Positions 3,351 to 23,980 of a DNA stretch of 32,388 nt are shown here, in pieces. The stretch is from a virus. Under the pieces are notes generated by a model, which was not told where the DNA came from, searched no databases, and saw only the letters and a program-made list of their open reading frames with translations. Position 1 is the first letter of the stretch; each line of letters starts with the position of its first letter. The translations under genes were made by a program, and so were the position numbers. The stretch lies in IMG/VR virus record IMGVR_UViG_3300021600_000016, positions 1 through 32,388 of that record. One strand, 5' to 3'.

Positions 3351-5488
3351 GTTAAACAAATTGTATCATAAACAATTATCAGTTCAATTATAATTTCTTG
3401 ACCGTCTAAACTATTATTTGTTGTACTTGTTTCAATAGTTATTTGATTGTTCGCAGCATCAACACTAATATTACCAATTCCTGGTATTGTTTGTAATAAC
3501 GCAACAACCGTATCATAATAAAGATTATCACTTGGAGCGTCAATCAAAGAAGTTGATGTGTAAAAACTTTGACTTGTTGTCAAACCTAAAGGATTAACAG
3601 AAACTTTAACACTAAAGTCGGCAGATATTAAATTACAACTTGTATTACCTGATGTTAAATCGTCATAACCATCATTTAACATTTGTAATAAACCATATTT
3701 TGTTTGGGATTGAATATTAAACGATTGAGACCCCATAACATATGTTTGGTATGACACATAAGTTGCGTCACAATTAATATTAATAGACCTTAACACTGAG
3801 CATCCATCATCATCAATAATTGTTACACTATATGTACCGCCAGTTAATCCTGTAACCGTAATTTCTTGTGGATTACCATAAACATTATCTGACCAATCAA
3901 AAATAAACGGTGGTGTTCCCGAAGAAATAAACGCAGTAATTGTACCTTCTGAACCTGTACCACAAGAAGTACTATATAAACTATAATCTAATTGTGTACT
4001 TGCATTAACATAAACTTGAGTTGTCTGTGTACATCCAGTATTATCCGTAACAGTAATCGTATGTTGACCTGTCGATACATTATTAAATGTAACCGCAGAT
4101 TGTGAAGTATTATTAATATTAACCAAACCATCCAATGAATAATCAAATGGTGGTTGACCTCCATTAGTTTTAGTAACCGTAACATATCCATTACTTTGAT
4201 TACAAGTTGTTCCTGTGGTTTCAGTTGAAATTGTAAAAGTATTTGTTGTGTATAATGTAACCTCATTCATATAATAACACCCTGAAGCGTCTTGAACTGA
4301 AACCGTGTAAGTTCCCGAATATAATCCTGAAAAAAGTTGGTTTGTTTGGTTGTTGGCGATATTCAATACGTTCCCATCGGGATATATTAAAGTATAAATG
4401 TATGGTGAAGTTCCACCATTAACCGAAACGGTTATAGAACCACCATTACTTGAACATGTTGAACCTTGTGTTGCAATGCTAACTGAAGTAATTCCATTTG
4501 GTGATGTTAATACTGTTCCCGCAACAAATGTACATAAAGCAGCGTCTGTAACTTGAATACTATACGCACCTGGTGATAATCCTGATAACGTCCACGTTGT
4601 CGGATATTGTACCGTAACATCCCCCGTAGATGCAGAATAATAATAAGGTGCAGTTCCTCCCGTAATTTGAATGGTTAAGACCCCATCATTAGAAAAACAT
4701 GTTGGCTGTGTTGTGGTAAATGCTCCGAATCCGATAGGTGCAACATTATTTACTGTTGCCGATTTGGTTGTTACACATCCATAAGAATCTGTAACATTAA
4801 CAGAGTAAACCCCTGCGGTTAATCCTGTAACTGTTGACCCTGTGGCACTTGTTGTCCAAAGGTATGTATAAGGTGGAGTTCCTGTTAACCCTGTAACCAT
4901 AATCTTACCCATAGGATTACCTCCGCAAGATGAATTTGGTACCACATATAACCCATAATTTAATGTATCCGAATCTTCAACAATAAAATTAGAGGTTTGA
5001 CCCGTACAACCACCCAAGTCAACGACCCTCATATAATATGTTCCAGCGGTTAAACTTCCAAAGACAACTGTTGGTTGATTTGTTGTTGCGGATTGTGAAA
5101 ATACGCCATCACCATGATATATGTAAAAATCTGCCGAAGAGTATTCCGATGTAGAACTACCCGTAACCGAACCATTATTTAATGAACATGTCGTACCTTG
5201 TACCGCAAGGACACTTGCACATACACCGCTTGATATAGGTATGTTGATATAAAGTTCATTGTTTATTGGTAGAGTACTATCATTAACCCTAACCGCATAT
5301 GTTGTAGCACTTAAACTAGTTTTTACAGCTGGTTGTGTTGTTATAATATTTGGCGATAATACAGGACTTAACCATTGTACCGTATAAGGTGATGTACCAC
5401 CAGTCAAACTTAAACTGATTGAGCCCGAGTTTGTATTTGAACAATCTCCTGTTACCGCAATATTATAATTAAAAATTGTTGATGGCAT
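3347..5488 (-). CDS. Tail protein built of SprB-type beta repeats
   Basis: The 713-residue product contains about seven tandem units of roughly 75-85 residues over residues ~1-560. Each has the SprB-repeat signature: (S/T)GGTxPYxYxW early, GLxxGxYxVxVTD later, then a GC dipeptide. SprB repeats are known from large surface adhesins and gliding-motility proteins of Bacteroidetes. Residues ~560-713 are a different, unrecognised C-terminal domain. The gene starts at an ATG overlapping the upstream stop by one base (TAATG) and sits between a baseplate protein and fibre genes, so it is most likely a virion protein, perhaps a fibre shaft or adhesin. Repeat recognition is strong; the virion role is inferred from context. 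Confidence 0.7.
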   Translation of the reverse strand: MPSTIFNYNIAVTGDCSNTNSGSISLSLTGGTSPYTVQWLSPVLSPNIITTQPAVKTSLSATTYAVRVNDSTLPINNELYINIPISSGVCASVLAVQGTTCSLNNGSVTGSSTSEYSSADFYIYHGDGVFSQSATTNQPTVVFGSLTAGTYYMRVVDLGGCTGQTSNFIVEDSDTLNYGLYVVPNSSCGGNPMGKIMVTGLTGTPPYTYLWTTSATGSTVTGLTAGVYSVNVTDSYGCVTTKSATVNNVAPIGFGAFTTTQPTCFSNDGVLTIQITGGTAPYYYSASTGDVTVQYPTTWTLSGLSPGAYSIQVTDAALCTFVAGTVLTSPNGITSVSIATQGSTCSSNGGSITVSVNGGTSPYIYTLIYPDGNVLNIANNQTNQLFSGLYSGTYTVSVQDASGCYYMNEVTLYTTNTFTISTETTGTTCNQSNGYVTVTKTNGGQPPFDYSLDGLVNINNTSQSAVTFNNVSTGQHTITVTDNTGCTQTTQVYVNASTQLDYSLYSTSCGTGSEGTITAFISSGTPPFIFDWSDNVYGNPQEITVTGLTGGTYSVTIIDDDGCSVLRSININCDATYVSYQTYVMGSQSFNIQSQTKYGLLQMLNDGYDDLTSGNTSCNLISADFSVKVSVNPLGLTTSQSFYTSTSLIDAPSDNLYYDTVVALLQTIPGIGNISVDAANNQITIETSTTNNSLDGQEIIIELIIVYDTICLT

Positions 5489-8472
5489 TATTTATTACAA
5501 TTTATATTAATATTTATTCCAACATTTAAAGTAACGGTTTCCTGTAAATTTTGAGAAACACATCCTAAATTTGTTATTGTTAATTTATTACCATTTAAGA
5601 AATATGTGTAGCCATAATCATATAATGTCGGTAGATAATCGATTAAAGCATTTCTCCATTGTGAATTTGTTGGTACATCAGTATATCCATATCCATTATA
5701 GAAAGTTTCTTGAATTAAAATTTGATTATTGATTCTTAAGTCAACAAACCATTCAGTTTGAACAGAATTTTGATAACACTGATTAAGTGTTAATCCACTT
5801 GATGACAACATGTTATTAATTCGATTAGAGAGAATACTATTAAAGTTAGAAACGGTAATGTCTCCATTTAGCCATGGATATATGTAAAAATCAACATATT
5901 CGGTATTACATGTGTAATCGAAGATACTTGAAATGATATAACACGGGTCAACAGGGACTGGTATAAATTGACAACCTCTTTGTCTTCTATAAACAAATTT
6001 TTGTTTGTGGAAGATTGAGTTCTCCAATCTAACCCCGCCATTCCAAATGGTTGTGGCAGGAACCATCTGTTCCACCAACTTAGTCCAATAAGGACCTATA
6101 CCATTCACGTAATCAATTAACTTTTGATAAGTGTACTTGTTGTTAGGTAACCCGACAGTTTGTTCTGATTCAATGTATTTCCACCAAATAGATTGTAGTG
6201 TTGGATAACCACCAGTTTTACCATCAGTTATGTATTGTCTATTTCTTGTGTTAATCATATTCTGCCAAAAAGTTTGGGAGAATTCAAAGAACGTTTTCTT
6301 CTTAGGCTTTGGGTCAACATAAGTCCAATCAACCCCACCTGGCACAGGATAACCAACCGTTAAACCTGATTCAGGAATCGGGTAATCATATTTTCTTGAT
6401 TGAGCCCAAACATCATAAACAAGACCTTGTCCTGGATTTAGGAATATATCAACATTCTTAACATTTAACACTAATTTCTCATTATCAACAAAGTAATACG
6501 CATTATAATCCCCTTGAGTCGATAGTCTAACTTTATCATCGTCTGCCAACCAAGATTTATTATTATCAACAATCTTTTGAAGTTTGAATCCTTCATTCAT
6601 GTATGGGAAATCTCTAAACCTATTTAAATAGGTTTGACCATATGTGAATGGTTGTAATTGTGTTTGTATACTAAAGTTCTGTCCTGTGTAAACATTTCCC
6701 GTAAGTACAACATTATCAGGACTTCTATGTGATGGTGTTGTTTCATACCAACCCGCTCCAATTTGGAAGAAATAAGTTTCTGTATTGACAGGAGCCTTAG
6801 GGTATCCTTCAAAGTCCATTGGGTATGCTGCTAATGTAATATTAGTGTCAGTGTATGTGGCGTTTGTTGTGAATGCGGTATATAAATGTCCGTAAACACT
6901 ATAAGTTTGACCTGGTGCATATGTAGGTGTTTGTTGAACATAAGTTCCACCCGATATTTGAGCCCATTGATAATAAAATTGGTCAAGATTTATTTTTTGG
7001 TCGGCCAAATAAATGTGTTCGTTGTATTCAATCAATGAATCTGGCGCCCCAATTAATCTTAATAAAAATTCAATAGACCTTCTTGTACCTTTTGATTTAA
7101 AAAGATAAGAAGCATTAAGAATTAAGTTTCTATAATAAGCGTAGTTTAACTCTGTTGGTGTTAAAGCTCTTGCATAACCAGGATATGTTGGTGTTGAGGT
7201 ATTACCAAAAACAGAACCTAAAAAATCTTCGTTTGTAATCGGTGAGAAATTAGACGACCATCCCAATGTTTGAGATAAATTGGCTAATAATTGTGAAGGT
7301 ATATCATTTGATGGATTATAGTTTACGGAATTCATGTAAGCCAACCCTTCAACAAATTGTTTAATTTGGTCAAAACTCCTACCATAAATTTGGAATATCT
7401 TTTCAACCTTTCTGCCCAAAGTATCAAATTCTTTTAATGAATCTGAAACCAAGAATCTTGAAATTAAATTAGTTTTAAATGAATCTAAGTTAATTGCAAT
7501 TGCTTGGATTTGTTCCAAATAAGAATCAAATAAGAATGAACGAATGTCCAAATTCCAAGGACCATCTTTTGGCCAAGTAACTTGTTGATAATCCGTATAT
7601 GTTTGACCGTATTCATTTTGTTGTGGTACTTGAAATACCGCAGTATATTCAGGTCTAACTAATCTGTTAACTAAGAATTTCTCAACCTCATCAAAACTTT
7701 CTTGAAAGACTTTGTCAACAATATAATCATTTGGTCTAATTTGAAATTCTCTTTGTAGTGTTGTCGCTGTTGAGCCAAATGGTGCCCCTGAAACATAAAA
7801 TGTTAAGTTTCCTGAAGATAAAGTCTCTGACGGAACAAAGGCTAAAATTTTATAAATGTTATCATCAATACTAACACAATAATCCAAATAAGTCTCATTA
7901 ATATTTCTATAAGGTGAAACATCTAATTCTCTAAGGGCTAAGTTGGTTGCAGCACTAACCGAATAATCAATATCAAATGGATTACGAATCCTATCAACAT
8001 TTACTTTAAAATAAGTCTCATCTGTTTGTGTGTCATAAACGATATCATAAGCAGTATCACCTGTGATATAATTTCCATTACTAAATTGAACATCTATTGA
8101 TGCCGGAAAATAATTAATAACACGAGTAATTGAAACCCTAAATCTTTCAGATAAAGAGCCATACATTGAAAAGTTAAGAACTTGAGTAATATCGTAGTTA
8201 GGATAAACTCTAAATTGAGTTGCAAGTATTCTTCTACTTTCTTCTAAACTATCGATACTCATCATATCCAATGTCATTGGTTCAGAGAACGCGCCAACAT
8301 TGAATGTTCGATTAACTTTTTCAGTTACTCCTGTTGTAAACTCAAAATTACCTTGCGTAAGTCCTCCTCCCTCAACAGTTTGTAATCCTACAATGTTGTC
8401 AGAGAAAGTACCCGCTCCGTTACCTGGTCTTGGTGGGTAAAAATATTTAGTATTTGTTGTGTTTACTGCCAT
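5488..8472 (-). CDS. Baseplate wedge protein with P2 gpI / T4 gp7-like region
   Basis: This is a 994-residue protein. Residues ~345-480 follow the pattern of the phage tail protein I family (P2 gpI): a long helical stretch, LANLSQTLGW, then a helix reading YRNLILNASYLFKSKGT and RRSIEFLLRLIGAP, the region that in gpI proteins precedes the interface with the gp6-like partner. In contractile tails gpI corresponds to T4 gp7, which together with two gp6 copies forms the wedge heterotrimer. The much larger size suggests extra peripheral domains at both ends. It is coupled to its neighbours through TAATG overlaps. The domain assignment is by motif pattern from memory; a profile search would settle it. 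Confidence 0.6.
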   Translation of the reverse strand: MAVNTTNTKYFYPPRPGNGAGTFSDNIVGLQTVEGGGLTQGNFEFTTGVTEKVNRTFNVGAFSEPMTLDMMSIDSLEESRRILATQFRVYPNYDITQVLNFSMYGSLSERFRVSITRVINYFPASIDVQFSNGNYITGDTAYDIVYDTQTDETYFKVNVDRIRNPFDIDYSVSAATNLALRELDVSPYRNINETYLDYCVSIDDNIYKILAFVPSETLSSGNLTFYVSGAPFGSTATTLQREFQIRPNDYIVDKVFQESFDEVEKFLVNRLVRPEYTAVFQVPQQNEYGQTYTDYQQVTWPKDGPWNLDIRSFLFDSYLEQIQAIAINLDSFKTNLISRFLVSDSLKEFDTLGRKVEKIFQIYGRSFDQIKQFVEGLAYMNSVNYNPSNDIPSQLLANLSQTLGWSSNFSPITNEDFLGSVFGNTSTPTYPGYARALTPTELNYAYYRNLILNASYLFKSKGTRRSIEFLLRLIGAPDSLIEYNEHIYLADQKINLDQFYYQWAQISGGTYVQQTPTYAPGQTYSVYGHLYTAFTTNATYTDTNITLAAYPMDFEGYPKAPVNTETYFFQIGAGWYETTPSHRSPDNVVLTGNVYTGQNFSIQTQLQPFTYGQTYLNRFRDFPYMNEGFKLQKIVDNNKSWLADDDKVRLSTQGDYNAYYFVDNEKLVLNVKNVDIFLNPGQGLVYDVWAQSRKYDYPIPESGLTVGYPVPGGVDWTYVDPKPKKKTFFEFSQTFWQNMINTRNRQYITDGKTGGYPTLQSIWWKYIESEQTVGLPNNKYTYQKLIDYVNGIGPYWTKLVEQMVPATTIWNGGVRLENSIFHKQKFVYRRQRGCQFIPVPVDPCYIISSIFDYTCNTEYVDFYIYPWLNGDITVSNFNSILSNRINNMLSSSGLTLNQCYQNSVQTEWFVDLRINNQILIQETFYNGYGYTDVPTNSQWRNALIDYLPTLYDYGYTYFLNGNKLTITNLGCVSQNLQETVTLNVGINININCNK

Positions 8473-10514: not shown

Positions 10515-11335
10515 TATGGGTTAACATATTCATACCATTTTATGGGTAACGCCGCCCCAGCTCTTTGACCGTCATTAAGATAGATTGATTGATTTGGATT
10601 CATGTTGAATACTTGGTAGTCATGTTTCTCATAATTCAATTCAACTCGATAATAAAAATATTGTGAACTATCGAATGAATATTTATTTCCTGAAATCGAT
10701 GATTGTGGCATATTCGCCATCTTAACAAAATATCCTTTTTTTGCATCATAGAATTTTGCTGTCATAAAGAATGTGTTAATATCCAAGAATGTTCTTTTCT
10801 TTAACCAATAGATAAAAAACCCTTCTTTATCTCCAACATAATCCAAGACAAAATATGGTTTCTTAATACTAACAAGAGTTGTTTGCATAAATGCATCCAT
10901 CTTCAATCCTTGTTGTGTTGGTATAATAATTGTTACATAGTTTTTCTGTCTTTTACTATCCACATTATCATATAAGTCCAATTTAAAAAATGAATTGGTA
11001 AAATTATTTGTATAATAAAAAATATCCTGTGTTGTAAATCCTTCCATCAAATAGTCAGACCTCCAATTCGTACTATCATTCAAAGAACCTCCTGAATAAA
11101 AGTTAAATTCATATTTAATATCTGTTGGTTCAGTTGTTGTACCCGTTAAAGGTGCGTGAGCAAATCGAGTAACCTCAAAGTCTCTACCCTTACCAATAAC
11201 TTCATTAATAATCTCACCTTCATATTCATCAATACTTTGGTCCAACCCAACATAGTCCCAAGTAAATTGAACTGGGATTGTAAGTTGTCTATCAACGAAA
11301 CCGTCTTTACGAATTGTTAATTTATTCACACTCAT
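10514..11335 (-). CDS. Unknown baseplate/tail protein (273 aa)
   Basis: The start is set at the ATG at 11335 (MSVNKLTIRKDGF); a TTG one codon upstream is less likely. The start lies 14 bases inside the end of the upstream gene, and the stop overlaps the next start by one base, so it belongs to a coupled chain. The protein is rich in Tyr, Phe and Asp, soluble, with beta-type patterns and no recognised domain. It is probably structural, judging from the neighbours. Confidence 0.6.
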   Translation of the reverse strand: MSVNKLTIRKDGFVDRQLTIPVQFTWDYVGLDQSIDEYEGEIINEVIGKGRDFEVTRFAHAPLTGTTTEPTDIKYEFNFYSGGSLNDSTNWRSDYLMEGFTTQDIFYYTNNFTNSFFKLDLYDNVDSKRQKNYVTIIIPTQQGLKMDAFMQTTLVSIKKPYFVLDYVGDKEGFFIYWLKKRTFLDINTFFMTAKFYDAKKGYFVKMANMPQSSISGNKYSFDSSQYFYYRVELNYEKHDYQVFNMNPNQSIYLNDGQRAGAALPIKWYEYVNP

Positions 11336-13010
11336 CAAATAATGGTTTTACAGGGTATTGAACACCAACGGTATTGTAGTTTATTCCTTCAGGTATTAAC
11401 CTAAAGATGGCTTCTTTATATGGGTATTGAGCACTATTCAAAAATGGATAATCAACACCTCTTTCAAGATTGTCTTTAAACCCATAAGTATATAGGTCTC
11501 TCCATCTAAATTGTTGGTCCGAAGAAGAATAAAAAGAATAGGATGGTATATTATCAACTTGCCCAACATTTGCACTTTCAACGTAATCAGAGAAAACCCT
11601 GATTGTCATCGACGTGTGGGGCTCATAGTAAAACCCTGGAGCGTTAGTGGAATAAGTATTGGTCGTTTGAAAAACATTTTGATTGTAATTTAGTTTTTGA
11701 TAATATGGTGACACAACTCTTTCAAATTGTTCATAGTCATTCCATTCACAAAAATCCCCATCAATGGTATCACCTGACATCAAATCTTGATTATAATAAA
11801 ATGTTTTGGTTGCACCATTTGTTAGTGTATAATTTGACGTTTGAATATTTGTATCCGAGTTATTATTAAGTAAATCCCACCAATAACTTATTGGTGACGT
11901 TAAGTTAAATTCCCAACCTTGTTTTAATCCAATACCATTATTTGGTTGATTAAAATAACCTGTATATCCTTTATTAATAATTGTTAAAAATAATTCACTA
12001 ACAGGTCTTTTTTGATTATCTAAAATACCATTTAAATTCAAATCATAATTAACTGTAACATTATAAGAGTTACTACTTGTTTTTTGAGATACTCTTGAAA
12101 TTTTGTTTGGTGTTATTGAACTGTATTCAAATTTCTTTTCTTCATTAAAAACATTTTTTTCAAAACCGTTTTTAGTCATGATACAACCATCAACATTGGT
12201 TAAAATTTTATGTTCCCTAATATAATATTTTGATTTTGTTTCTACCAAATTATCGGGGTTAATAACCCTTTTAAAAGTCCCTGTAACACTATTAGCAAAA
12301 GTGGTACCAGTGTATCCATAATTATATATGTTGAAAATATTACTATCACTATCAAATTCATCATTACCTAATGAATAAACTTGAAATAAATTTGTTTGAT
12401 TATAGAAAAAAGATAATTCAACATATTCACCAACGGTTAATCCGTGTGGTGCAACACATTGAAATCTAATAACATTACTTCCGTTTTCTGTTCCATTAAT
12501 AATTGAAAATGGTATTCCTTCCGATGCAATCCAATTATGTGAACTATTGTTTAAATCATACGATAATTTTTTATCATAGTTGTTACTATAAGCATAACTT
12601 ATATAATAAGTCCAATTGTATGTGTAAGCACTTTTTGCCTGATATAAAATATGTTGGTCATTAATATATGGTCTATAAAAATCAAACTCATAATATTGGG
12701 GATAACCTTTCCATATACCACTAACTGAAGATTGTTCTGGCTCAACATAATATAAAGTATTTTGAAATGGTCTATATCGAGTTGTTCCCGTATATGTATT
12801 ACCATATAAATAATTAACTTTAAAGGTTGGTCTAAAGATAGTACTACTTTGTCTTTCATCATCATATACTTGAGCCAAACTAATACTTTGACTTCGGTCA
12901 TATTCAACCATTTGTTGACTTTGTTGTTCTAAAGTAACACTAATTTCTTGGTCGACAAAAGGCGCTGATTTGTATTCTTGACTACTTGGTATGATGGTAT
13001 ACTTATTCAC
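11322..13010 (-). CDS. Unknown Tyr/Asn-rich tail protein (562 aa), GTG start
   Basis: The only plausible start is a GTG at 13010, overlapping the end of the giant upstream gene by eight bases; the next in-frame ATG (MVEYDRSQ) would remove over 30 residues. The protein is strikingly rich in Tyr, Asn and Ser and poor in Cys. It ends with a compact segment containing WRDLYTYGF, RGVDYPFLN and AIFRLIPEG that looks like a folded terminal domain. No family is recognised. Its place directly after the giant baseplate gene suggests a partner in the same substructure. Confidence 0.6.
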   Translation of the reverse strand: MNKYTIIPSSQEYKSAPFVDQEISVTLEQQSQQMVEYDRSQSISLAQVYDDERQSSTIFRPTFKVNYLYGNTYTGTTRYRPFQNTLYYVEPEQSSVSGIWKGYPQYYEFDFYRPYINDQHILYQAKSAYTYNWTYYISYAYSNNYDKKLSYDLNNSSHNWIASEGIPFSIINGTENGSNVIRFQCVAPHGLTVGEYVELSFFYNQTNLFQVYSLGNDEFDSDSNIFNIYNYGYTGTTFANSVTGTFKRVINPDNLVETKSKYYIREHKILTNVDGCIMTKNGFEKNVFNEEKKFEYSSITPNKISRVSQKTSSNSYNVTVNYDLNLNGILDNQKRPVSELFLTIINKGYTGYFNQPNNGIGLKQGWEFNLTSPISYWWDLLNNNSDTNIQTSNYTLTNGATKTFYYNQDLMSGDTIDGDFCEWNDYEQFERVVSPYYQKLNYNQNVFQTTNTYSTNAPGFYYEPHTSMTIRVFSDYVESANVGQVDNIPSYSFYSSSDQQFRWRDLYTYGFKDNLERGVDYPFLNSAQYPYKEAIFRLIPEGINYNTVGVQYPVKPLFDECE

Positions 13011-16000
13011 CTACAGAATATTTTGTTTTAAATTTATCTAATGCAGTTTCACCTTTAATTATTCCAAAATAAAAATGGAATGGTGCACTTACTAAAAATC
13101 TACTGGAAGGTACTCCCGCCATACTATATGAATGAGTACCATTAGAATCTACATTAAAGATATATCCTCTCTCATATAAATCACTTGTGATATTTGAATT
13201 CACAAAATATGTTGGTGAATTGATATTTCTTCTATCTAATGATTGATACTTGTAACCAAAAATACCTGAAAGATTAATGTCTTGGGATTGATTAGTTTTC
13301 CAATTATTCTTTTCACTACCAAAGATAGACGCTGTTGAAGGTTGACTTAATTCCCATTGATAGAATGGTACGTATTGAGATTTAATCCCATATGGATAAG
13401 TTATCGCATTTGCATTATTTGATGGTCTAAAATCAATAACTCCAGGTGTTAAATAATCTTTGTTTTGTAAATCTACCGTTGTTGATGAAAAGAAAACACC
13501 CATTGTTGGATTATCTAATCCACCTAAAATAACCACAGGGTCACTACTTGTACCATAAACACTATAATATTCAGGTGAGAAGGGAATTACACCATATTCG
13601 GAGTTAATTGACATAATTTGAGCTAAATCCCCATCAATTCTTTTTTCAGGTCGGGTAAACAATTGGTTTAATCCATTATTTCCCGCAGTAACAATTTGGG
13701 CTAAGAACCCTTCATCAGTAATTCTAGATATAACAAATAAATTAACCAAGTCAGAAGTATCAGAATAACTTGTCGGATTTAAAGTATTCATGATATATCC
13801 TTTAGCCGATGGGTCAAAAATAATTTCATTATAAAAATCATCTTTAATTCCTAAATTAATAATAGTTGTTGGGAATAACAAATTTCTTTGGTTAACAGGT
13901 TTTACTAATGGTGCTCCATACTGATTTGTATTTGGTCTTCCAATAAATCTTTGACTTGTTGAACCAGAAAAATATGGGGAACTTCTATAATAGAAGTTAT
14001 TTGTTTTGTCGTCAAAATAAACTAACTCTTTTGCAAATTTTGGCGGTAATGGTTTATTATTACTATCAAAAAATGTATCTACTTGTATTGGAAAAGTATA
14101 CAAAGAACCGTTAACCCAATTATTAGTAAATGTTTGAGACAAAACTCCACGACATAAACCATAAAAAAATCTAAATCTATATCCCCACTCTCCAAACGCC
14201 GCTAAATCTTTACCCAAATCTTTCATTGCATGAACCATAAACACATAACAACCATTCTCAACTGAATCACTATTTTGACAATTTGTTGATACTCCAAAAT
14301 TTACACCATTACCACTATAACAATTAAGGCCAACCATTTTTTCGCACACACTTAAAGTTTCTACGACATTAACGCTTGCAAGTTGTCCTTCAATGTCCGC
14401 AGTGGCTTGTGATGCTCCTGTTGAGAATCCATTAATAGTATCAACATTACCAAAACTATTAAATCGATAAGTTGCAAATCCAAGATTTTGTTGTAGTAAA
14501 CTAACATTATTATTTACATCACTTGTATCAATGTAACTTGATGATGGTAATCTATCTGTTCTCATGATTGGTTTATTAGAATCAGTGATACTAAGAGCAT
14601 TTGAACCTGTTAATGTCGGGTACAATATTGGACTAAAATAAGCTTGCGCAACAGTGCCAATATATGCCCCAACATGAGCATCACAAAACCCAAAAGTACA
14701 ATTAACACAAACTAAACTATTATAATATGATGGAATATTTGTTGTTAAAATTGCTCCTCCCGATAAATCTTCTGCGGCATCGTACATTAAATCACTTGTG
14801 GTTGATAAATAATAACCATTATAAGTTTTAGTACTAACACCTTTTCTTAAATTTGGATAAGTTGGTGTTTTATTAACAAAACCTATAGAATTATAAGTAC
14901 CTGTTGGGGCTACAACTATTCTATTTGATGGTACTGAATCTAATGACCCATAATATCCAACATTACTTGTTGTATATGCAGAATATTGAAATCCAGGTGT
15001 TGTTGAGCCAACGACTCCTGGTGTGTAAAAATGAGACTGAGTGTAAATATTATTTTGATTAGTATGTTGTTGTACGGATGTTGTTGTAGTTGTCTCAATT
15101 TTTTGTATTGGAGTATTAAGTCTTGTTGATGCCGTAAATGTCCAATTTGGGTCATTTTCATTAGTCCCCAATATTTTACCAATACCATATTGATTAGTAA
15201 GTAATGGCGAATATGGGTCAACACCTCTTTGTAATATTAATATTTTTTGTTCCGTTACATCTGAAAAATAATTAATTGGTTTTCTAGTATAAGGTGTTAT
15301 CGCCTGTTGAAAGGAACTTTTAAGGAAATCTCCGTTTTTAGTCCATCCATTGTTAGCAGAACTAAAAGTACAATTAACATCTTCTAAAAATCTCCAAGCA
15401 CTTAAAGTAACCGATTTATTTAATAATCCACTCCAAAAACCATCAACACTTCCTGAATTTGGGACAGAATATTGAGTAACCCCATTAACAACACTTGAGG
15501 TAATGGTAATTGCGGTTAATACTTGGTAATATTCAATATCTGAAGGAAATATATATCTTTGACAAGTGTCTCCACTACTAATTAAATTAAAATCCGCAGT
15601 ACCACCTAAAGTACTTATGTTAATACAATTAACGTCATTTATAGTTTGCACCCCTAATGTTGTTGCACTATAAATAACTCCAAGTGTATTACAATCATAA
15701 TAACTAATCACACCCAAACTAGTTACATCAACAGTAACACTATCAACACATGGTAGGCTAGCAGATGGTGGTATAATATATGGGACCAATATTTCATTAT
15801 TTTGATTGTTTGGGTCAGCATACTTAACGTTTACATTAAATTGATTAGTTTTTATTGTACCATTAATACCCTTAAGAGTTGTCGCTCCATTAGTGGTTAA
15901 TCCTGACCATAAATAATTTGGGTCTTTTGTTGTTAATGGGTTAACGAAAGATAATAAAGTTCCTGGTTCTAAATCTTGAGTCGATAATACAGTTAAAGTA

Positions 16001-18108
16001 TTGTCATAGTGATGTGTTGAATTTGCATCTGAGGCGAATGTTACTTTTATTTTATTAACTCCTTGAAAATATTTATTTCTTGTGTTAAAAATATTAATCC
16101 TTTCCCCTATTGGTAAATTATCACTTGAAACATAATATTTACCCCCATCAACAACATAATATCCATTACTATCTATGGTTGGTAATCCAAAATTTTGAGT
16201 TCCTGGAAATATAGTTTGGTCACTAAGTGCCGTTTTAAACACATTAGGTAATGAAGGATTACTATTTCTTCCTGCCATAGCTTGAGCTTCCATTAAAGCC
16301 CACCTTGCATTTACCTCATAATTAGTACTTCCATTTTTTTCGTAATAAGTAATTAAGTTTTCAATATATAACGATGGATTAGAAACTTGAGATAAAAGAC
16401 CAGGACTTGGTACGTCTGCAACTGCTTGATAAATGTCTATTGTTCCACAGTCACAAGCTTGACAATCAGGATAAGTAATCATTGGTAATTTAAACGATGG
16501 AAATCTAAATTCTAAACCCAATAAATATGCAATTTTATCCCATATCCAAGCAATTAAATGATAAACTATTAATAATACTAAACCAACAATTTGTATTATT
16601 TGTAATATAATAGCAAAAAGAAAATAAATTAAATCAAAATTTCTAAATCCTTCATTTACAGGGAACTTATTAATAGTACTTTCACATTCTTGGCTATCAA
16701 TTTCTTTAATACCAATAAATCTACCCCTACCACCATTTTTAAATTCATCGATTAATCCTGAAACAGTATAAACTTTATTAAAGTCAAATTGATAAAACGT
16801 ATCATCACAATTTATTGCTGCTTGTGTGTTTGTATAACCAGTCCAATCTAAACCAAAATAATAAGAACCAGCTAACTTCGTATTTAAAGATGGTGTTGCA
16901 ACCGAATTAGGGTCTTGAAATGAATTTGACCACCCGTATTCTCTAACATTAGGAACTAAAAAATATGGTCTTCTTACTTGTTCCGTTAATGCTGCGGGTT
17001 GTTGCCATTTAATTTTAAAACGATATTTTGCCTTTGTCGGTATACCAATTGTTGGGTCGTTTGAAATAACTTTTTCACCAAATTCATTTGTTATATAATA
17101 ATCCAAATTCATTGGTAATTCTGTTAACCAAACTCCTGTTCCGTCAATAATATTACCCGATTGTTCTAATTTATATTCCTCTAATATTGGATTACCTGTG
17201 GTATCTTGTTGTATTGTTTGTCGTATTGCAAGTATTTGTCCAGGTCCCGTAGTTAAAGAACACAAATTACCCATATCATCTTTTGGTCTTGCATTTTTTC
17301 TAACCCTAAAACCATCAGGTGTAGAATAAATTGAACCCATAAAAACTGAAGTAGGTTGTATATTAACATTTGCATCATCTCTTAAATCAAAATCAAGTCG
17401 ATTTATTGCAATATCACAAATGTCAGGCTCACCCCAAAGTGGTGAAATTTCTAAACTTTTAACTAAATTAATAATTTGAGGTAATGAATTTATATCGTTT
17501 GAACTTCTAAATCTATTTCCCGCAACTTGTCCTTCAGTTGCCAATCCCATTCTAATTAAATCTTGAGGAGTTAATGAAAACTCACCAATATCAGATAAAT
17601 CAACATCCATCACAACGGTTTGATACCCTAAAGGTACCCCCATTATCATGTAATCACCACTTTCATTTGTTTTGGCGGTGAACTTATAATATTTGTCATA
17701 GATTTCAACTGCGGTTGTTCCTGTCAAAGCATCTAACCTTGATGGGAATGTTCCTGTGGCTGCGTGAACTGAATAAGATTTTTCGTAAGGTAATAAATTA
17801 TACCTGTACCCATCTTCATTTTTATCTGTTGGAGATTTGTAAGGGTATATACTTGATATTAATGGGTTGGATTCGTCAACATTAGTTATAGGTATGAATA
17901 TAGATACTCTCGCATTAGGTAAACCAAACCCGTTATTGGCGGTAACCCTACCTACAATAACACCATAATCCGCACAACTTCTAGTATAAACATCTTCTTG
18001 TTGTAACTTTAAAGATAAAATCTCTAACTGTTCAAACTCTTGGTCTAATTGTACGTTGATTGTTTTGTTAACTCCTAATTCAGTCCTTATTCTATATGAT
18101 TGACCCAT
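13003..18108 (-). CDS. Giant baseplate/tail protein (1701 aa) with an internal hydrophobic segment
   Basis: This is the largest gene in the window, directly after gp6. Residues 48-170 resemble a carboxypeptidase-regulatory-like beta sandwich (GVIVGRVTANNGFGLPNARV, later TNESGDYMIMGVPLGYQTVV) with an insertion between the strands. Residues 493-523 are uncharged and strongly hydrophobic, long enough to span a membrane, followed by a shorter hydrophobic stretch to 532. A CxxCxC cluster follows (C549, C552, C554). The remainder is a Cys-containing beta-rich region ending in FHFYFGIIKGETALDKF. In T4 the gene after gp6 is gp7, but the gpI-like features are in the 994-residue protein instead, so I do not assign gp7 here. 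The virion location is inferred from context. Confidence 0.65.
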   Translation of the reverse strand: MGQSYRIRTELGVNKTINVQLDQEFEQLEILSLKLQQEDVYTRSCADYGVIVGRVTANNGFGLPNARVSIFIPITNVDESNPLISSIYPYKSPTDKNEDGYRYNLLPYEKSYSVHAATGTFPSRLDALTGTTAVEIYDKYYKFTAKTNESGDYMIMGVPLGYQTVVMDVDLSDIGEFSLTPQDLIRMGLATEGQVAGNRFRSSNDINSLPQIINLVKSLEISPLWGEPDICDIAINRLDFDLRDDANVNIQPTSVFMGSIYSTPDGFRVRKNARPKDDMGNLCSLTTGPGQILAIRQTIQQDTTGNPILEEYKLEQSGNIIDGTGVWLTELPMNLDYYITNEFGEKVISNDPTIGIPTKAKYRFKIKWQQPAALTEQVRRPYFLVPNVREYGWSNSFQDPNSVATPSLNTKLAGSYYFGLDWTGYTNTQAAINCDDTFYQFDFNKVYTVSGLIDEFKNGGRGRFIGIKEIDSQECESTINKFPVNEGFRNFDLIYFLFAIILQIIQIVGLVLLIVYHLIAWIWDKIAYLLGLEFRFPSFKLPMITYPDCQACDCGTIDIYQAVADVPSPGLLSQVSNPSLYIENLITYYEKNGSTNYEVNARWALMEAQAMAGRNSNPSLPNVFKTALSDQTIFPGTQNFGLPTIDSNGYYVVDGGKYYVSSDNLPIGERINIFNTRNKYFQGVNKIKVTFASDANSTHHYDNTLTVLSTQDLEPGTLLSFVNPLTTKDPNYLWSGLTTNGATTLKGINGTIKTNQFNVNVKYADPNNQNNEILVPYIIPPSASLPCVDSVTVDVTSLGVISYYDCNTLGVIYSATTLGVQTINDVNCINISTLGGTADFNLISSGDTCQRYIFPSDIEYYQVLTAITITSSVVNGVTQYSVPNSGSVDGFWSGLLNKSVTLSAWRFLEDVNCTFSSANNGWTKNGDFLKSSFQQAITPYTRKPINYFSDVTEQKILILQRGVDPYSPLLTNQYGIGKILGTNENDPNWTFTASTRLNTPIQKIETTTTTSVQQHTNQNNIYTQSHFYTPGVVGSTTPGFQYSAYTTSNVGYYGSLDSVPSNRIVVAPTGTYNSIGFVNKTPTYPNLRKGVSTKTYNGYYLSTTSDLMYDAAEDLSGGAILTTNIPSYYNSLVCVNCTFGFCDAHVGAYIGTVAQAYFSPILYPTLTGSNALSITDSNKPIMRTDRLPSSSYIDTSDVNNNVSLLQQNLGFATYRFNSFGNVDTINGFSTGASQATADIEGQLASVNVVETLSVCEKMVGLNCYSGNGVNFGVSTNCQNSDSVENGCYVFMVHAMKDLGKDLAAFGEWGYRFRFFYGLCRGVLSQTFTNNWVNGSLYTFPIQVDTFFDSNNKPLPPKFAKELVYFDDKTNNFYYRSSPYFSGSTSQRFIGRPNTNQYGAPLVKPVNQRNLLFPTTIINLGIKDDFYNEIIFDPSAKGYIMNTLNPTSYSDTSDLVNLFVISRITDEGFLAQIVTAGNNGLNQLFTRPEKRIDGDLAQIMSINSEYGVIPFSPEYYSVYGTSSDPVVILGGLDNPTMGVFFSSTTVDLQNKDYLTPGVIDFRPSNNANAITYPYGIKSQYVPFYQWELSQPSTASIFGSEKNNWKTNQSQDINLSGIFGYKYQSLDRRNINSPTYFVNSNITSDLYERGYIFNVDSNGTHSYSMAGVPSSRFLVSAPFHFYFGIIKGETALDKFKTKYSVGE

Positions 18109-18200: not shown

Positions 18201-20039
18201 TTAAGAGAAAGTAATTGATTGGAAATTCTTAACTGAAACTCTAACGTCTTTACCTGGATATCTAATCTGATAAACTTGTGATGGTTGAGCAAATATTGTA
18301 TCATCAACAGGTCCAATAAGTTTTAATGCTGGGTCTGAATACTCCATAGATGTTTCTGCCGATGAATACTGACCTCCAACTTCATTGAATACATCCAAAG
18401 TAGAAACGGTTAACACTCCATTTGTATTTTGAATAATACTTCTAAGTTCAGATAAATAAACGTTCTGTCCTAATTGTCTTACTTGAGGGTTAAAATATGT
18501 TGATACTTTATCAATCACACTTGAAATAACTTGTCCTGAATTTTGTGCAGAGTCTAAAACAATTGCAACATCAACACTTAAATCAATAACCTGGGCACTA
18601 AATATTGAAATATAATCATTCATCATTCGATAATTTGATAGATAATTTGCGATGTTTTGTCTTAATGTGTTTGATACCATATTGGTTAACTTACCAGACG
18701 TATCGTATGATAATATTTGAATTAAAATCTTATTGTTATTTTCTGTAATAGATACTTTTGCAGGTGCTCCAAACTGAGCTGGCATGTTTCTAATAATTGA
18801 TTCGTAATCTTGTACGGTAACCGCTCTCTTTTGAGCTGAGAAGTTAAAGGATACATAGTTTCTAATTTCCTCTAATGATGGAATACCCGCCCCGCCTACA
18901 GCGGCAGTTACGTTAACACACCTTAATGAGTTCACCACAGAAGAGTTTGTTGTCTCTGAAGGTCCATTAACAAAGAATGAAACCGTACCAATTTGATTAA
19001 TTACATTAGTTCCTAAGTTACTTCCTAATCCACCACCAACTCTATATTGTACAAACAATGTTGAGTTTGGTGTTAATGTTGTACCTAATGAGAAATTGTT
19101 TGAATATTTTTGAAGGTCTAATGTAGTACCTAAAGTTGTAAATTGATTCAATTGGTCTTGAGCTGTATTAGTACCCCCACCAAATGTCATTTTCTTAAAT
19201 CCTTCAGGAGTATATTCGGTAATAAATCTATCTTGAGTTTGAATATATCTACCTACTTTAATACCAGGTTGGTCAGAAACTTTTGTTGGGTCTTCAATGA
19301 ATACTCTGTCTTCAGCCAACGCATCAACTTCATACCATCTATTATCTACCCCTAAGAATTCTGCGGTTGTTGGTGTATTTGTATATTGAGTACCGTTCTT
19401 TAATAACACACTTGTAATACCCAAAACATTTTTTTCAGGTAAAAACATTTCAAAGAAAGGTTTAACATCATTTGCTCCAATAACTCTTTTGAATACTTTT
19501 GTAACACCATTTACAACAACTTCCCTTTTTGTAATCGTATAATTAATTAAAACATTATTAGCATTAAAGTTTGGAATCTTTAATCTATTTGGTGCTCCTT
19601 GAGAATTGTACGGAGATGCAAAATCAATGTCATAAACATTTTCAAATACAACTCCAGCCCCAACAACTTGTGAACCTCTTAATAAAGTACCAAGATATCT
19701 TTCATCTTCTTTATCTCCAAAAGCAGGAACCGTAATTGAGAAATCAACTAAAGCAACCGATGGTCTTTGACCAGGTAATTTTAATCCATAGGTTCTGGCA
19801 ATATTGTAAATTGACGACCTTTGTTGTGCATATTGTAATACGGTCTCTTGAATACTTCTATCAATATTATAATGTAAGTTGTCCGCAATTGCAGCATTTA
19901 AATCAATAAACACAGAGAATACAGATGCATCATTAAAGTCTTGGATTAAATCAGGGTAGTATGTTTTTGCATAATTTAAGAGTTCTGTCCTGATTGACTG
20001 ATAATCTCTAGTTGCATATGATATTCTATTATTTGCCAT
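18201..20039 (-). CDS. Baseplate wedge protein, T4 gp6 / baseplate J-like
   Basis: The 612-residue protein begins with the typical gp6/J-like opening: NRISYATRDYQSIRTELLNY, then YYPDLIQDFNDASVF and a helix with LNAAIADNLHYNIDRSI. The central region has RAVTVQDYESIIRNMP, the conserved segment seen across the baseplate J family, and a C-terminal region of alternating helices and strands. T4 gp6 is of similar size (about 660 residues). Two copies pair with one gp7/gpI-type subunit to make the wedge ring that triggers sheath contraction. It follows the gp25-like gene by five bases, the T4 gene order. Confidence 0.85.
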   Translation of the reverse strand: MANNRISYATRDYQSIRTELLNYAKTYYPDLIQDFNDASVFSVFIDLNAAIADNLHYNIDRSIQETVLQYAQQRSSIYNIARTYGLKLPGQRPSVALVDFSITVPAFGDKEDERYLGTLLRGSQVVGAGVVFENVYDIDFASPYNSQGAPNRLKIPNFNANNVLINYTITKREVVVNGVTKVFKRVIGANDVKPFFEMFLPEKNVLGITSVLLKNGTQYTNTPTTAEFLGVDNRWYEVDALAEDRVFIEDPTKVSDQPGIKVGRYIQTQDRFITEYTPEGFKKMTFGGGTNTAQDQLNQFTTLGTTLDLQKYSNNFSLGTTLTPNSTLFVQYRVGGGLGSNLGTNVINQIGTVSFFVNGPSETTNSSVVNSLRCVNVTAAVGGAGIPSLEEIRNYVSFNFSAQKRAVTVQDYESIIRNMPAQFGAPAKVSITENNNKILIQILSYDTSGKLTNMVSNTLRQNIANYLSNYRMMNDYISIFSAQVIDLSVDVAIVLDSAQNSGQVISSVIDKVSTYFNPQVRQLGQNVYLSELRSIIQNTNGVLTVSTLDVFNEVGGQYSSAETSMEYSDPALKLIGPVDDTIFAQPSQVYQIRYPGKDVRVSVKNFQSITFS

Positions 20040-20044
20040 TTCTA

Positions 20045-20515
20045 TTAAATATTAATAATAACAAAATCACTCTGTGCGTATGTCGAACCATTTGTTGAGT
20101 AATCTAATCTTATTTTTGCTGTGTATTCGGCAGTTCCTTTACCAGGAAATCGATAAATTGATGACTCACTTGTTCCTGCAAAGTTTTGACCTGTGGCGAT
20201 ATCCACTTCTTGCTGTGGGTCAGCTGGAGTAATACTTAAACTATTAACCAATAAGTTTGGCATAAAGTTTTCAATAGCATCCCTTATGTCAGATTCAATA
20301 GCATTAAAAGTTAAACCATCAAATGGTTCAAAAAGAAATTCATATAATCTTGTTCCAAATTGTGGTAAAAAGTATCTTGACCCTTTTCTCGTTAATAGTA
20401 AATGTATCAAGTCGGCTTTAATTTCTTGGGCCTGTAATTGAGTAAGTTCTAAATAATCCCCTCGTTTCGAATCTCGAAAGGGAAAATTAATACCATAAGT
20501 AAAACCATTTGCCAT
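20045..20515 (-). CDS. Baseplate wedge protein, T4 gp25 / GPW family
   Basis: The 156-residue protein has the GPW/gp25 core: INFPFRDSKRGDYLELT, a helix with QEIKADLIHLLLTRKGSR, then the hallmark YFLPQFGTRLYEFLFEP and DIRDAIENFMP. In contractile tails this small protein joins the wedge to the first sheath ring and helps start sheath polymerisation. Length is close to T4 gp25 (132). It opens the structural module after the nrdA terminator and precedes gp6, as in T4. There is no Shine-Dalgarno; the start is preceded by an A/T-rich leader. Confidence 0.88.
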   Translation of the reverse strand: MANGFTYGINFPFRDSKRGDYLELTQLQAQEIKADLIHLLLTRKGSRYFLPQFGTRLYEFLFEPFDGLTFNAIESDIRDAIENFMPNLLVNSLSITPADPQQEVDIATGQNFAGTSESSIYRFPGKGTAEYTAKIRLDYSTNGSTYAQSDFVIINI

Positions 20516-20593: not shown

Positions 20594-23020
20594 TTAGGAA
20601 CTACATCCAAAACATTCAAAAGGACTGTCTTCAGGTTTTTGTGTTAATTCATGTATTTCAACTTTTGGTATTTCAACTTTAACTTTAGGTTGTGATATTT
20701 TTGAAACATCAACCGCCAAGTGTTTAGCTCCCGTTGAAATCGCTTTAGTTCTAACATAATAACATAAAGTCTTCAAACCTTTTTCCCATGAGTGGAAATG
20801 TGATGAGGTAATCTTGGACAATGTTGGGTTAGCCATATAGATATTCATTGATTGTGATTGGTCGATAAATGGTGCTCTATCTGCCGCCATGTTAATCAAT
20901 TCTCTTTGCGAAATCTCCCAAATTGTTTTGTACTTACTAATCAAGTGTTCAATACGTTTAACTTTCTTAGTATAGTTTTTATCCTCAGTATCAAGGTGAT
21001 TATTAAAGTTAATGTTTTGAACTGAACCTTCATTTATAATGATTTCGTTTTTCAATTCTTCACTCCAAATACCAATCTTCTCAAAGTCATTAATCAAATA
21101 CTTGTTTACAATCATAATCTCACCACCAACAACTCGTCTGTTAAATAACGCTGAGTGAGCTGGTTCTGTCATTTCAAATGAACCTGTAATCTTAGCTGAA
21201 GACGCCACAGGCATCTGAGCCGTAAATAATGAGTTACAAACACCGTAAGTTTTAACTTCTTCTTTTAAAGAATCCCAATTCCAAAGACCACTTAATCCTT
21301 CATAATCTAACCCCCACATATCAAATTGGAATACCCCTTTTGACATTGGTGAACCTTTAAAGTGAGCGTATGGTTTGTGTATCATTATTTTACATAATTC
21401 CATACTTTCAGTGATTGCCGCAAAGTATATAGTTTCAAAAATAGTTTTATTTAATTTCTTAGCTTCTTCAGATGTGAAAATGTAATCCATCAAATAAAAT
21501 ACGTCAGCTAAACCTTGAGTACCAATCGCAATTGCTCTTTGGTCCAATCCACCTTTTCTACCTTTTTCAGTTGAGTAACTGTTAATGTCAATAACTTTGT
21601 TAAGAGCTCTAACAACTTTTCTTACTTCACTATAAAGTAGGTTAAAATCAAACTCACCTTTCTGAATAAAGTTTTTCAATACCATAGAAGATAATGTACA
21701 GATTGCCGTAGTTTCTTCATCGGTATATTGGTAAATCTCATTACAAAGGTTAGATTGTTTAATCACACCAATGTTCTGATGGTTTGTTTTCTTGTTAGCA
21801 TTGTCTTTAGAACATAAGTAAGGAACACCAGTTTCAACTTGTGATTCAATAATCTTAGTCCAAACATCTTGAGCTTTAACTTTTTTACCAAGACCTAACT
21901 CAACCGCTTTGTTATAGTTTGCTTCGTATTCGTCACCATAACATTCTTGAAGTGGTTTAATACCCGCTTTAAGAATATCGTTAGGACAGAACAAATACCA
22001 ATCAGTACTTTCCTTTACCGCTCTCATGAAGTTGTCAGGAATCCAAAGAGCTGTGAATAAATCTCTTGCTCTTAATTCTTCAGCACCTGTGTTCTTTTTA
22101 ATATCTAACAAGTCCATAACATCTTTGTGCCATGGTTCGATGTAGATAGCAGCACTACCAGGTCGTCTTCCTTGTTGGTTAAAGAATCTTAATGACTCGT
22201 TAACAATTTTCAAATACTTCAATAATCCACCCGCAAATCCACCTGATGAATTGATACGACTTTCTTTACTTCTAATGTTAGACATTGATAAACCAATACC
22301 CGCCGCGTCTGAAGAATACGTTGAGATATCATTCAAGGTTTCTAATAAACCATTACGTGAATCTGAGTTATTATAATGTAATACACAAGACGCTAATTGA
22401 GGAACTTTGGTTCCTGAATTAATAATGATTGGTGTTGCTGGTGAAATAAGTTGATTAGATAACGAATGGTAATATTCAACCGCTTCCTCGAATGAGTTTG
22501 TCACCCATAGAGCAACTCTCATATACATGTGTTGTGGTCTTTCAACTACTTTACCTTGTGGTGTCTTTAACAAGTACATTTCTTGTAATGAACGCCAAGC
22601 AAAGTAATCAAAGTTATTATCATTCTCGTGATTAATAACTTCATCAATCTTGTCGTGGCCATATTCATCCATAGTTTGGATTAACTTGTCGTTAATAACA
22701 CCACTCTCGTGTAACTCTTTAATTGTCTCACAAAAGCTTTCATTAGTCTCTTTGTGGTATGCAGAAATTGCAACCGATGATGCTAATCTTGAATAGTCAT
22801 GGTGACTACCAGTATAAGCGGCAGCGATTTCATAAACCAGCTTATCCAACTCTTTAGTTGTAATAAGTCCTTCAGTTGGTACCGATGTGATAACCTTAAT
22901 GAATATTTCATCAGAGTTAACGTTTAATCCTTTAGCAGCTCGTTTAACTCGATTATAGATTTTTTGAGGATTAAATGATACGTCCTCACCGTTTCTTTTT
23001 TTAATTTTTAATGACATCAT
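20594..23020 (-). CDS. nrdA: Class Ia ribonucleotide reductase, large subunit
   Basis: The 808-residue protein reduces ribonucleoside diphosphates to deoxy forms for phage DNA synthesis, with NrdB supplying the radical. An ATP-cone allosteric domain lies at about residues 3-93. Active-site residues are visible: C212 (LASCVL), N424/C426/E428 in SNLCNEI, and C441 in AICTLSS. The adjacent Tyr pair of the radical path is in LCYYVRTK. The C-terminus carries the redox pair C803/C806 (ECFGCSS). The 15-residue spacing of C426 and C441 and sequences such as KGLKT...YYVRT resemble eukaryotic-type R1. The gene is 12 bases after nrdB and is closed by a strong terminator. ATGs at 23020 and 23017 are both possible. 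Confidence 0.95.
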   Translation of the reverse strand: MMSLKIKKRNGEDVSFNPQKIYNRVKRAAKGLNVNSDEIFIKVITSVPTEGLITTKELDKLVYEIAAAYTGSHHDYSRLASSVAISAYHKETNESFCETIKELHESGVINDKLIQTMDEYGHDKIDEVINHENDNNFDYFAWRSLQEMYLLKTPQGKVVERPQHMYMRVALWVTNSFEEAVEYYHSLSNQLISPATPIIINSGTKVPQLASCVLHYNNSDSRNGLLETLNDISTYSSDAAGIGLSMSNIRSKESRINSSGGFAGGLLKYLKIVNESLRFFNQQGRRPGSAAIYIEPWHKDVMDLLDIKKNTGAEELRARDLFTALWIPDNFMRAVKESTDWYLFCPNDILKAGIKPLQECYGDEYEANYNKAVELGLGKKVKAQDVWTKIIESQVETGVPYLCSKDNANKKTNHQNIGVIKQSNLCNEIYQYTDEETTAICTLSSMVLKNFIQKGEFDFNLLYSEVRKVVRALNKVIDINSYSTEKGRKGGLDQRAIAIGTQGLADVFYLMDYIFTSEEAKKLNKTIFETIYFAAITESMELCKIMIHKPYAHFKGSPMSKGVFQFDMWGLDYEGLSGLWNWDSLKEEVKTYGVCNSLFTAQMPVASSAKITGSFEMTEPAHSALFNRRVVGGEIMIVNKYLINDFEKIGIWSEELKNEIIINEGSVQNINFNNHLDTEDKNYTKKVKRIEHLISKYKTIWEISQRELINMAADRAPFIDQSQSMNIYMANPTLSKITSSHFHSWEKGLKTLCYYVRTKAISTGAKHLAVDVSKISQPKVKVEIPKVEIHELTQKPEDSPFECFGCSS

Positions 23021-23032
23021 ATTTTTTTATAA

Positions 23033-23980
23033 TTAGAAATCTTCCTCAAAAGAAATGGTTTCATTTAATTTTGCTTTTTGATACTCAACAGTTCTTGACT
23101 CAAAGAAATTTCCTTTTGTCTCAACTGCAATTTGTTCCATGAATTTGAATGGTTGTTCAACATTGAATTCTTTTTTACATCCAAATTTAACCAATAGACC
23201 ATCAACAACAAACTCAAGATATTGTTTCATCAAGTTTGAATTCATACCAATTAAAGATACAGGTAATGACTCAGTGATGAATTCTTTCTCAATTTCCAAT
23301 GCTGATAATAAAATCTCTCTGATTTTTTTTTCACTTGGTTTATCTTCAATGTGATTGTTCAACAAGTGAATTGCAAAGTCACAATGTAAGTTCTCATCTT
23401 TAAAGATTAAAGAATTAGCATTACACAAACCTTGCATAATACCTCTTGATTTTAACCAAAAGATTGAACAGAATGAACCTGAAAAGAAAATACCTTCAAC
23501 CGCCGCAAACGCGACTAATCTTTCTTGGAAAGATGATTTTTCAATCCAATCCAAAGCCCATTTAGCCTTCTTTTGAACTGCAGGTAAATTGTCCAAAGCG
23601 GTGAAACATAAATTCTTTTCTTCTTCATTTGAAATGTATGTGTCAATAAGAAGCGAATACATTAAACTATGAATATTCTCCATCATGAGTTGGAAACCGT
23701 AGAAGAATTTTGCTTCAGGGTATTGTACCTCACGATAAAAGTTTTCAGCCAAGTTTTCATTAACAATACCATCAGAAGCTGCAAAGAACGATAGAATGTT
23801 CTTAACAAAATATTGCTCATTCTCAGAAAGATTATTCCAATCTCTGATGTCATTAGTTAAATCTACTTCTTCAGCTGTCCACAAAGCCGCTTGGTGCATT
23901 TTGTAGTACTCCCAAATGTCGTTGTGCTGGATTGGGAAGATAACAAACCTATTAGGGTTCTCCATTAATATTTTTTCCAT
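23033..23980 (-). CDS. nrdB: Class Ia ribonucleotide reductase, small subunit
   Basis: The 315-residue protein forms the di-iron tyrosyl radical needed by NrdA. Predicted metal ligands are D40 (AEEVDL), E101 and H104 (MENIHS), E162 ([11 protein letters not shown]), and E196 and H199 (KDENLHCDF). The radical Tyr is Y108. Motifs [24 protein letters not shown] and [10 protein letters not shown] are strongly of the eukaryotic/Bacteroidetes-type R2 subgroup. The C-terminal tail ends SFEEDF, the peptide that docks on NrdA. It is slightly shorter at the N-terminus than animal R2 proteins. It lies upstream of nrdA, the reverse of the common nrdA-nrdB order. Confidence 0.95.

What the first reader, a model, noticed from the sequence alone, without database searches (positions are those of the whole stretch)
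13003..18108. Membrane-like segment and CxxCxC cluster inside a 1701-residue baseplate protein
Residues 493-523 are uncharged and hydrophobic, continuing as a hydrophobic stretch to 532, then C549/C552/C554. Virion tail proteins rarely contain such segments. It could be a buried trimer core, or a segment released on contraction to insert into a host membrane, with the Cys cluster as a metal site or disulfide knot. This is the most unusual single feature in the window.
Basis: partly seen in the sequence, partly recalled or inferred. Interest (0 to 1): 0.65.

Follow-up and report, generated by a model that had tools for sequence, protein, structure and literature searches.

The report
Conserved membrane-like helix in phage baseplate
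A large tail-base protein shared by hundreds of uncultured, contractile-tailed aquatic phages carries a conserved, very greasy helix bracketed by invariant cysteines, which probably lets the tail engage a bacterial membrane, something not previously assigned to this kind of baseplate protein.

Summary
The 1701-aa ORF is on the minus strand. Residues 493-523 carry no charge and are by far the most hydrophobic stretch of any tail gene in the window, followed by C549/C552/C554. The feature is family-wide: it is present in all 65 non-redundant relatives aligned, in 381 loci by motif, and in relatives at 37-40% identity. C475 is also invariant, so four invariant cysteines bracket the segment. In about half of the relatives the insert is much longer (127-147 aa between C475 and C549, 2-4 TM-like segments); the window's copy is probably a secondarily shortened form. 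The gene always follows gp6 (208/208 loci), in phages that carry a tail sheath. It has no match in cultured phages, Pfam, PHROGs, NCBIfam or PDB. AlphaFold gives one 40-residue helix in the window and a confident long helix plus return helix in a long-form relative. The helix's variable face is hydrophobic and its conserved face polar, the reverse of a soluble coiled coil. Best reading: a core baseplate protein whose helix engages a host membrane during infection, working like T5 pb2's hydrophobic stretch but in another protein. A buried oligomer core is not excluded; no oligomer was modelled and no virion exists.

The parts
13003..18108 (-). 1701-aa core baseplate-module protein (P0001)
   Evidence: relatives; strict linkage to gp6
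16639..18108 (-). Highly conserved N-terminal region, residues 1-490 (invariant C45, C231, C283)
16684..16686 (-). C475, invariant cysteine before the insert
   Evidence: 65/65 representatives; Cys present in 204/204 loci
16633..16671 (-). Near-invariant flank NKFPVNEGFRNFD, residues 480-492
16519..16638 (-). Hydrophobic helix, residues 491-530 (predicted as one helix)
   Evidence: Helix H491-530, blocks at mean pLDDT 63-83; hydrophobicity
16540..16632 (-). Uncharged stretch, residues 493-523
16465..16488 (-). Near-invariant flank LPMITYPD, residues 541-548
16447..16464 (-). CxxCxC: C549, C552, C554
   Evidence: 65/65 representatives
18201..20039 (-). gp6/J-like baseplate wedge gene, always the neighbour
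   Evidence: PHROG 219 and Pfam Baseplate_J; 208/208 loci
20045..20515 (-). gp25-like baseplate wedge gene
   Evidence: Pfam GPW_gp25, E=2e-11
11322..13010 (-). 562-aa gene downstream, conserved neighbour
   Evidence: Next detected window homolog in 156 of 162 loci
5488..8472 (-). 994-aa ORF, distant match to large tail proteins near gp6 in other phages; likely the gp7/gpI-type protein
   Evidence: blastp E=9e-8 to a Mel-JY01 ORF, 0.004 to immuto gp109; the gp7 label is inference

Best explanation
P0001 is a core baseplate protein of a lineage of contractile-tailed, mostly aquatic phages. Its large soluble domains sit in the baseplate next to gp6. From a site bracketed by four invariant cysteines (C475 before, C549/C552/C554 after) a hydrophobic helical arm emerges. 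The arm is held packed in the mature virion and is released when the baseplate opens on the host, where it inserts into a host envelope membrane to anchor the tail or help form the DNA passage. The conserved base is one helix of about 40 residues; the part beyond it is lineage-variable: absent in the window, a cysteine-bearing tip in 'mid' relatives, a hydrophobic hairpin in 'long' relatives. Shown here: conservation, predicted helicity, hydrophobic character on all faces, strict linkage to gp6, a sheath gene in all eight long records tested, and absence of comparable hydrophobic segments in the other tail genes examined, including the tape-measure-like gene. Inferred: presence in the virion, release on triggering, which membrane, anchoring versus channel, and that the four Cys meet at one site.
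For: Universal conservation of the segment and Cys. Insert length varies 71-147 aa with 1-4 TM-like segments, hard to reconcile with a tightly packed oligomer core. Predicted helix 491-530 in the window; in a long-form relative, a 68-residue helix plus a 24-residue return helix, with pLDDT block means of 80-98. All heptad positions of 493-523 are dominated by hydrophobic residues. Over 149 distinct helix sequences the hydrophobic moment (permutation p=0.0006) lies about 160 degrees from the conservation moment: conserved face polar/small (Q506, H517, S/A499), variable face hydrophobic. gp6 is the upstream neighbour in 208/208 loci. Sheath gene in 8/8 long records. In the 317-kb relative the other tail ORFs, including a 613-aa tape-measure-like one, have no segment above KD19 1.82. 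Precedent: T5 TMP pb2 has a 46-residue hydrophobic stretch proposed to insert into the outer membrane (PMC10038345).
Against: No virion, membrane assay or oligomer model. AlphaFold of the window's residues 1-760 is poor overall (mean pLDDT 49, pTM 0.30), so the setting of the helix is unknown. The conservation moment alone is not significant (p=0.25) and entropy does not correlate with hydrophobicity. T4 gp7 also carries a hydrophobic stretch (KD19 2.07) and a GenBank note of a predicted membrane domain, yet is a solved baseplate wedge protein. Helix-packing (small-xxx-small) motifs are only weakly enriched.
Confidence: 0.45

Rival explanations
1. The helix is a purely structural element: a fully buried core helix of an oligomer or of the contact with gp6 and other wedge or hub proteins, never meeting lipid.
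For: T4 gp7 has a segment with KD19 2.07, was annotated as a predicted membrane domain, and is a solved baseplate wedge protein. Conserved polar Q506 and H517 spaced 11 residues apart could form layers in a helical oligomer. Tail proteins are built from tight oligomers (general knowledge).
Against: The insert varies from 71 to 147 residues between relatives. The hydrophobic face varies freely while the polar face is conserved. T4 gp7's stretch is shorter and weaker than 2.94 over 31 uncharged residues.
Confidence: 0.3
2. The helix acts during assembly: it tethers nascent baseplates to the inner membrane of the infected cell, as an internal membrane anchor of a mainly cytoplasmic protein.
For: A long internal hydrophobic segment would be expected to be recognised by the host membrane-insertion machinery (general knowledge). 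In the long-form sequences shown, the C-terminal flank is rich in basic residues.
Against: A protein fixed in the inner membrane would have to leave it to enter a free virion. The even number and pairwise loss of extra cysteines at the tip fits an oxidising location better than the cytoplasm.
Confidence: 0.15
3. Despite its place the protein is not in the virion; it is a late membrane protein encoded in the tail operon.
For: No direct proof of a virion location; no homology to any known structural protein.
Against: Strict linkage to gp6 (208/208 loci) and a conserved downstream tail-module gene; a 1700-aa protein conserved over its whole length.
Confidence: 0.07

Closest known systems
T5 tape measure protein pb2 (PMC10038345)
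   Different: T5 is a siphophage and pb2 is the tape measure; P0001 belongs to a sheath-bearing (contractile) lineage, lies after gp6, and a separate tape-measure-like gene without such a segment is present in a relative
T4 gp7 baseplate wedge protein
   Same: Large protein encoded directly after gp6; GenBank notes a predicted integral membrane domain at its C-terminus; best hydrophobic segment KD19 2.07
   Different: No detectable sequence relation (blastp E=6.4); weaker, C-terminally placed segment; the window's likelier gp7-type gene is the 994-aa ORF
Lambda tail-tip protein gpL with a [4Fe-4S] cluster (PMC10721106)
   Same: Tail-tip protein with four conserved Cys, a precedent for a metal site in a tail tip
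   Different: Different Cys spacing (173, 182, 205, 212 against 475, 549, 552, 554); no metal shown here
Moraphages (PMC12619734)
   Same: Aquatic jumbo phages with sheath, gp19, gp25 and gp6, genomes to 307 kb, predicted Bacteroidota hosts, no tape measure found
   Different: Identity with this lineage could not be tested; glutamine synthetase and HSP70, reported for moraphages or some of them, were not found in six long records, several probably incomplete

Membership tests
T4 gp7 baseplate wedge family | Sequence homology to gp7 | tested here: not met
   blastp P0001 against T4 gp7 E=6.4; the A2 profile finds no gp7 chain in the PDB, where gp7 is present
T4 gp7 baseplate wedge family | Gene directly after gp6 | tested here: met
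   208/208 loci; T4 order
Tape measure proteins with membrane segments (T5 pb2 type) | Long hydrophobic stretch compatible with TM helices | tested here: met
   KD19 2.94, 31 uncharged residues; longer in relatives
Tape measure proteins with membrane segments (T5 pb2 type) | Is the tape measure: helical length-determining protein located in the tail tube | tested here: inconclusive
   P0001 is largely beta/coil in a poor model and lies after gp6, not next to the tube gene; a separate 613-aa gene near tube and sheath looks tape-measure-like by sequence, not proven
Tape measure proteins with membrane segments (T5 pb2 type) | Inserts into the host membrane on triggering | not testable with these tools
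   Needs virions or purified protein with liposomes
gpL-type tail-tip iron-sulfur proteins | Four conserved Cys in one domain | tested here: inconclusive
   C475, C549, C552, C554 invariant in 65/65, but that they meet in space is not shown
gpL-type tail-tip iron-sulfur proteins | Metal cluster bound | not testable with these tools
   Needs protein and metal analysis
Moraphage lineage | Membership by marker-gene phylogeny (TerL, MCP, PolB) | not tested
   Their sequences are not held in the collections searched
Known annotated protein families | Match in Pfam, PHROGs, NCBIfam or PDB | tested here: not met
   No match above curated cut-offs or at a meaningful E-value

The most novel reading that the evidence does not exclude
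A widespread, uncultured lineage of contractile-tailed phages uses a dedicated baseplate protein, not the tape measure, to put hydrophobic helices into the host envelope, with a conserved base helix bracketed by four invariant Cys and an interchangeable tip (none, cysteine-bearing, or hydrophobic hairpin).
Probability: 0.35. Interest if true: 0.75.

Novelty: new variant of a known kind. Interest (0 to 1): 0.57.

Why it matters
How contractile phages get DNA through the membranes after the tube has pierced the envelope is poorly understood, and membrane insertion is usually credited to tape measure proteins. A conserved hydrophobic arm in a baseplate protein would give a concrete, testable candidate for membrane engagement in a large phage lineage whose protein has no match in the 50,697 phage records searched. 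The family also gives more than 380 loci with natural variants of the same arm and different tips.

Tried and rejected
Soluble coiled coil: rejected because the heptad positions of 493-523 are hydrophobic all round. Homolog of T4 gp7: rejected at sequence level. Cellular or prophage relatives: none found in GTDB contigs. Relatives in the phages collection: none by tblastn; a profile search of immuto, Mel-JY01 and LR756508 was empty, without a positive control. Known fold: Foldseek against PDB and BFVD gave nothing at E<=0.001; VIA-align gave only generic helical hairpins, Z up to 9.2, which is inconclusive. Glycine-zipper-like enrichment: weak, 7.3 observed against 6.0 expected. CHAP domain: not found in 8 long records. 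One paper search failed on a short term.

Full report
WHAT WAS CLAIMED.

The ORF runs on the minus strand from 18108 down to 13003. The residue numbers are exact. The 19-residue hydropathy maximum is 2.94; none of 2000 shuffles of the protein exceeded it, though the best equalled it to rounding. Among the window's tail genes the next highest value is 1.89, and among 13 T4 baseplate, neck and sheath proteins the highest is 2.07 in gp7. Neighbouring ORFs with Pfam or PHROG hits support a T4-like contractile tail module: gp6/J-like 18201-20039 and gp25-like 20045-20515.

IT IS A FAMILY TRAIT. I aligned 65 non-redundant relatives. C45, C231, C283, C475, C549, C552 and C554 are present in 65/65. 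The flanks NKFPVNEGFRNFD and LPMITYPDCQAC are near-invariant. By motif the arrangement is in 381 loci, with a segment hydropathy maximum of at least 2.04 in every one. Four distant loci missed by the motif (L329, L330, L343, L350; identities 37-38%) come from two divergent types, and reading L329, L343 and L350 shows they keep the Cys, the FD start, the long hydrophobic stretch and CxxCxC.

THREE SIZES OF INSERT. The C475-C549 span is 71-82 (short, includes the window at 75), 88-104 (mid) or 127-147 (long). Long forms carry 2-4 TM-like segments. On a FastTree tree that leaves the insert out, the window's small clade of short and mid forms is nested inside a clade of long forms, so the window's version is most simply a reduced one. 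The root is a midpoint only, so the direction is likely, not proven.

CYSTEINES. In 171 distinct segments, extra Cys inside the insert number 0, 2, 4 or 6 in all but one. In all 17 two-Cys 'mid' segments the two that remain are the one just after the helix and the one about 17 before the CxxCxC; the two middle ones are gone together. On the tree, two-against-four needs 5 changes. This is what disulfide pairs would do. The window has none of these extra Cys. For the four invariant Cys I cannot tell metal from disulfide; lambda gpL is a precedent for a four-Cys Fe-S site in a tail tip (PMC10721106).

STRUCTURE PREDICTION. AlphaFold2 on window residues 1-760 with 64 sequences is poor overall (mean pLDDT 48.8, pTM 0.30), but predicts 491-530 as one continuous helix, with pLDDT block means of 78-83 over its main part and 63 in its last block. 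For the long-form relative L046, a 254-residue fragment with 109 sequences gives a 68-residue helix (94-161) and a return helix (168-191), with block means of 80-98 over the helices. No confident fold match. No coordinates and no oligomer modelling were available.

MEMBRANE OR CORE? The heptad positions of 493-523 are hydrophobic all round, so it is not a coiled coil with a wet outside. Over 149 distinct helix sequences, the hydrophobic moment (p=0.0006 by permutation) points about 160 degrees away from the conservation moment, and does so in both halves of the helix: conserved positions are polar or small (Q506, H517, S/A499), variable ones hydrophobic. That pattern is the one described for membrane helices that pack on each other (general knowledge). 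Caution: the conservation moment alone is not significant (p=0.25) and entropy and hydropathy are uncorrelated. The insert's length variation also speaks against a tightly packed core. Against me, T4 gp7 carries a GenBank note of a predicted integral membrane domain and is a solved wedge protein, so hydropathy alone can mislead in this very class of protein.

GENOMIC SETTING. gp6 is the upstream neighbour in 208/208 loci with room to tell; the 562-aa gene is the next detected window homolog downstream in 156 of 162. All eight long records tested have a sheath match, below the curated cut-off but at E of about 1e-7. In a 317-kb relative I see sheath (1069 aa), a tube-like protein (162 aa) and a tape-measure-like protein (613 aa; by sequence look, not proven); the only strong TM-like segments in the tail genes are in the P0001 homolog. 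The nearest cultured phages by gp6 and UvsX are the Flavobacterium immuto phages (28% and 44%); the tail ORFs next to their gp6 show no comparable hydrophobic segment and no P0001 homolog was detected. The 994-aa ORF of the window, not P0001, distantly matches the large tail ORFs near gp6 in Mel-JY01 and immuto.

MECHANISM I COMMIT TO (45%). A core baseplate protein whose hydrophobic arm, bracketed by four invariant Cys, engages a host membrane during infection, as proposed for the 46-residue stretch of T5 pb2 (PMC10038345). Conservation, predicted helicity and linkage are shown; virion location, release and membrane contact are inferred. Rivals: buried core (30%), assembly tether (15%), non-virion protein (7%).

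LINEAGE. The recently described moraphages (PMC12619734) resemble this group in habitat, genome size, gene set and predicted Bacteroidota hosts. I could not test identity; glutamine synthetase and HSP70 were absent from six long records.

Noticed in passing
window 17797-17826 (-), residues 95-104: DKNEDGYRYN, a DxNxDGxRxN stretch whose D95, N97, D99, G100, R102 and N104 are invariant in 64 sequences: looks like a calcium-binding loop.
   Followed up: no
mid-class relatives, e.g. L065, L009, L130 (insert before CxxCxC): Extra cysteines in the insert are even in number in 170 of 171 distinct segments and are lost in pairs (middle two together), suggesting a disulfide-held tip.
   Followed up: yes
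window 3347-5488 (-): 713-aa ORF with six SprB-repeat matches (Pfam PF13573), a repeat known from Bacteroidota surface adhesins; hints at a Bacteroidota host and a fibre-like role.
   Followed up: no
window 1187-2953 (-): 588-aa ORF with a long PTPTNT-type low-complexity repeat between two ordinary ends.
   Followed up: no
window 14152-14346 (-), P0001 residues 1255-1319: Second Cys-rich patch: C1255, C1287, C1319 present in 64/64 representatives with letters there, C1263 and C1277 in 60/64.
   Followed up: no
G001 (317-kb relative of the window), 50397-53606: Tail sheath of 1069 aa, much longer than T4 gp18 (659 aa); sheath open frames of about 1070 aa in all eight long records.
   Followed up: partly
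window 20594-23980 (-): Ribonucleotide reductase-like gene pair lies between the gp25-like gene and the helicase; in the 317-kb relative a different reductase-like ORF of 620 aa sits at that place.
   Followed up: no
L116 and L182, residues about 1032-1074 of the P0001 homolog: A second pair of TM-like segments in the C-terminal half of a few relatives; L315 has such a pair too.
   Followed up: no
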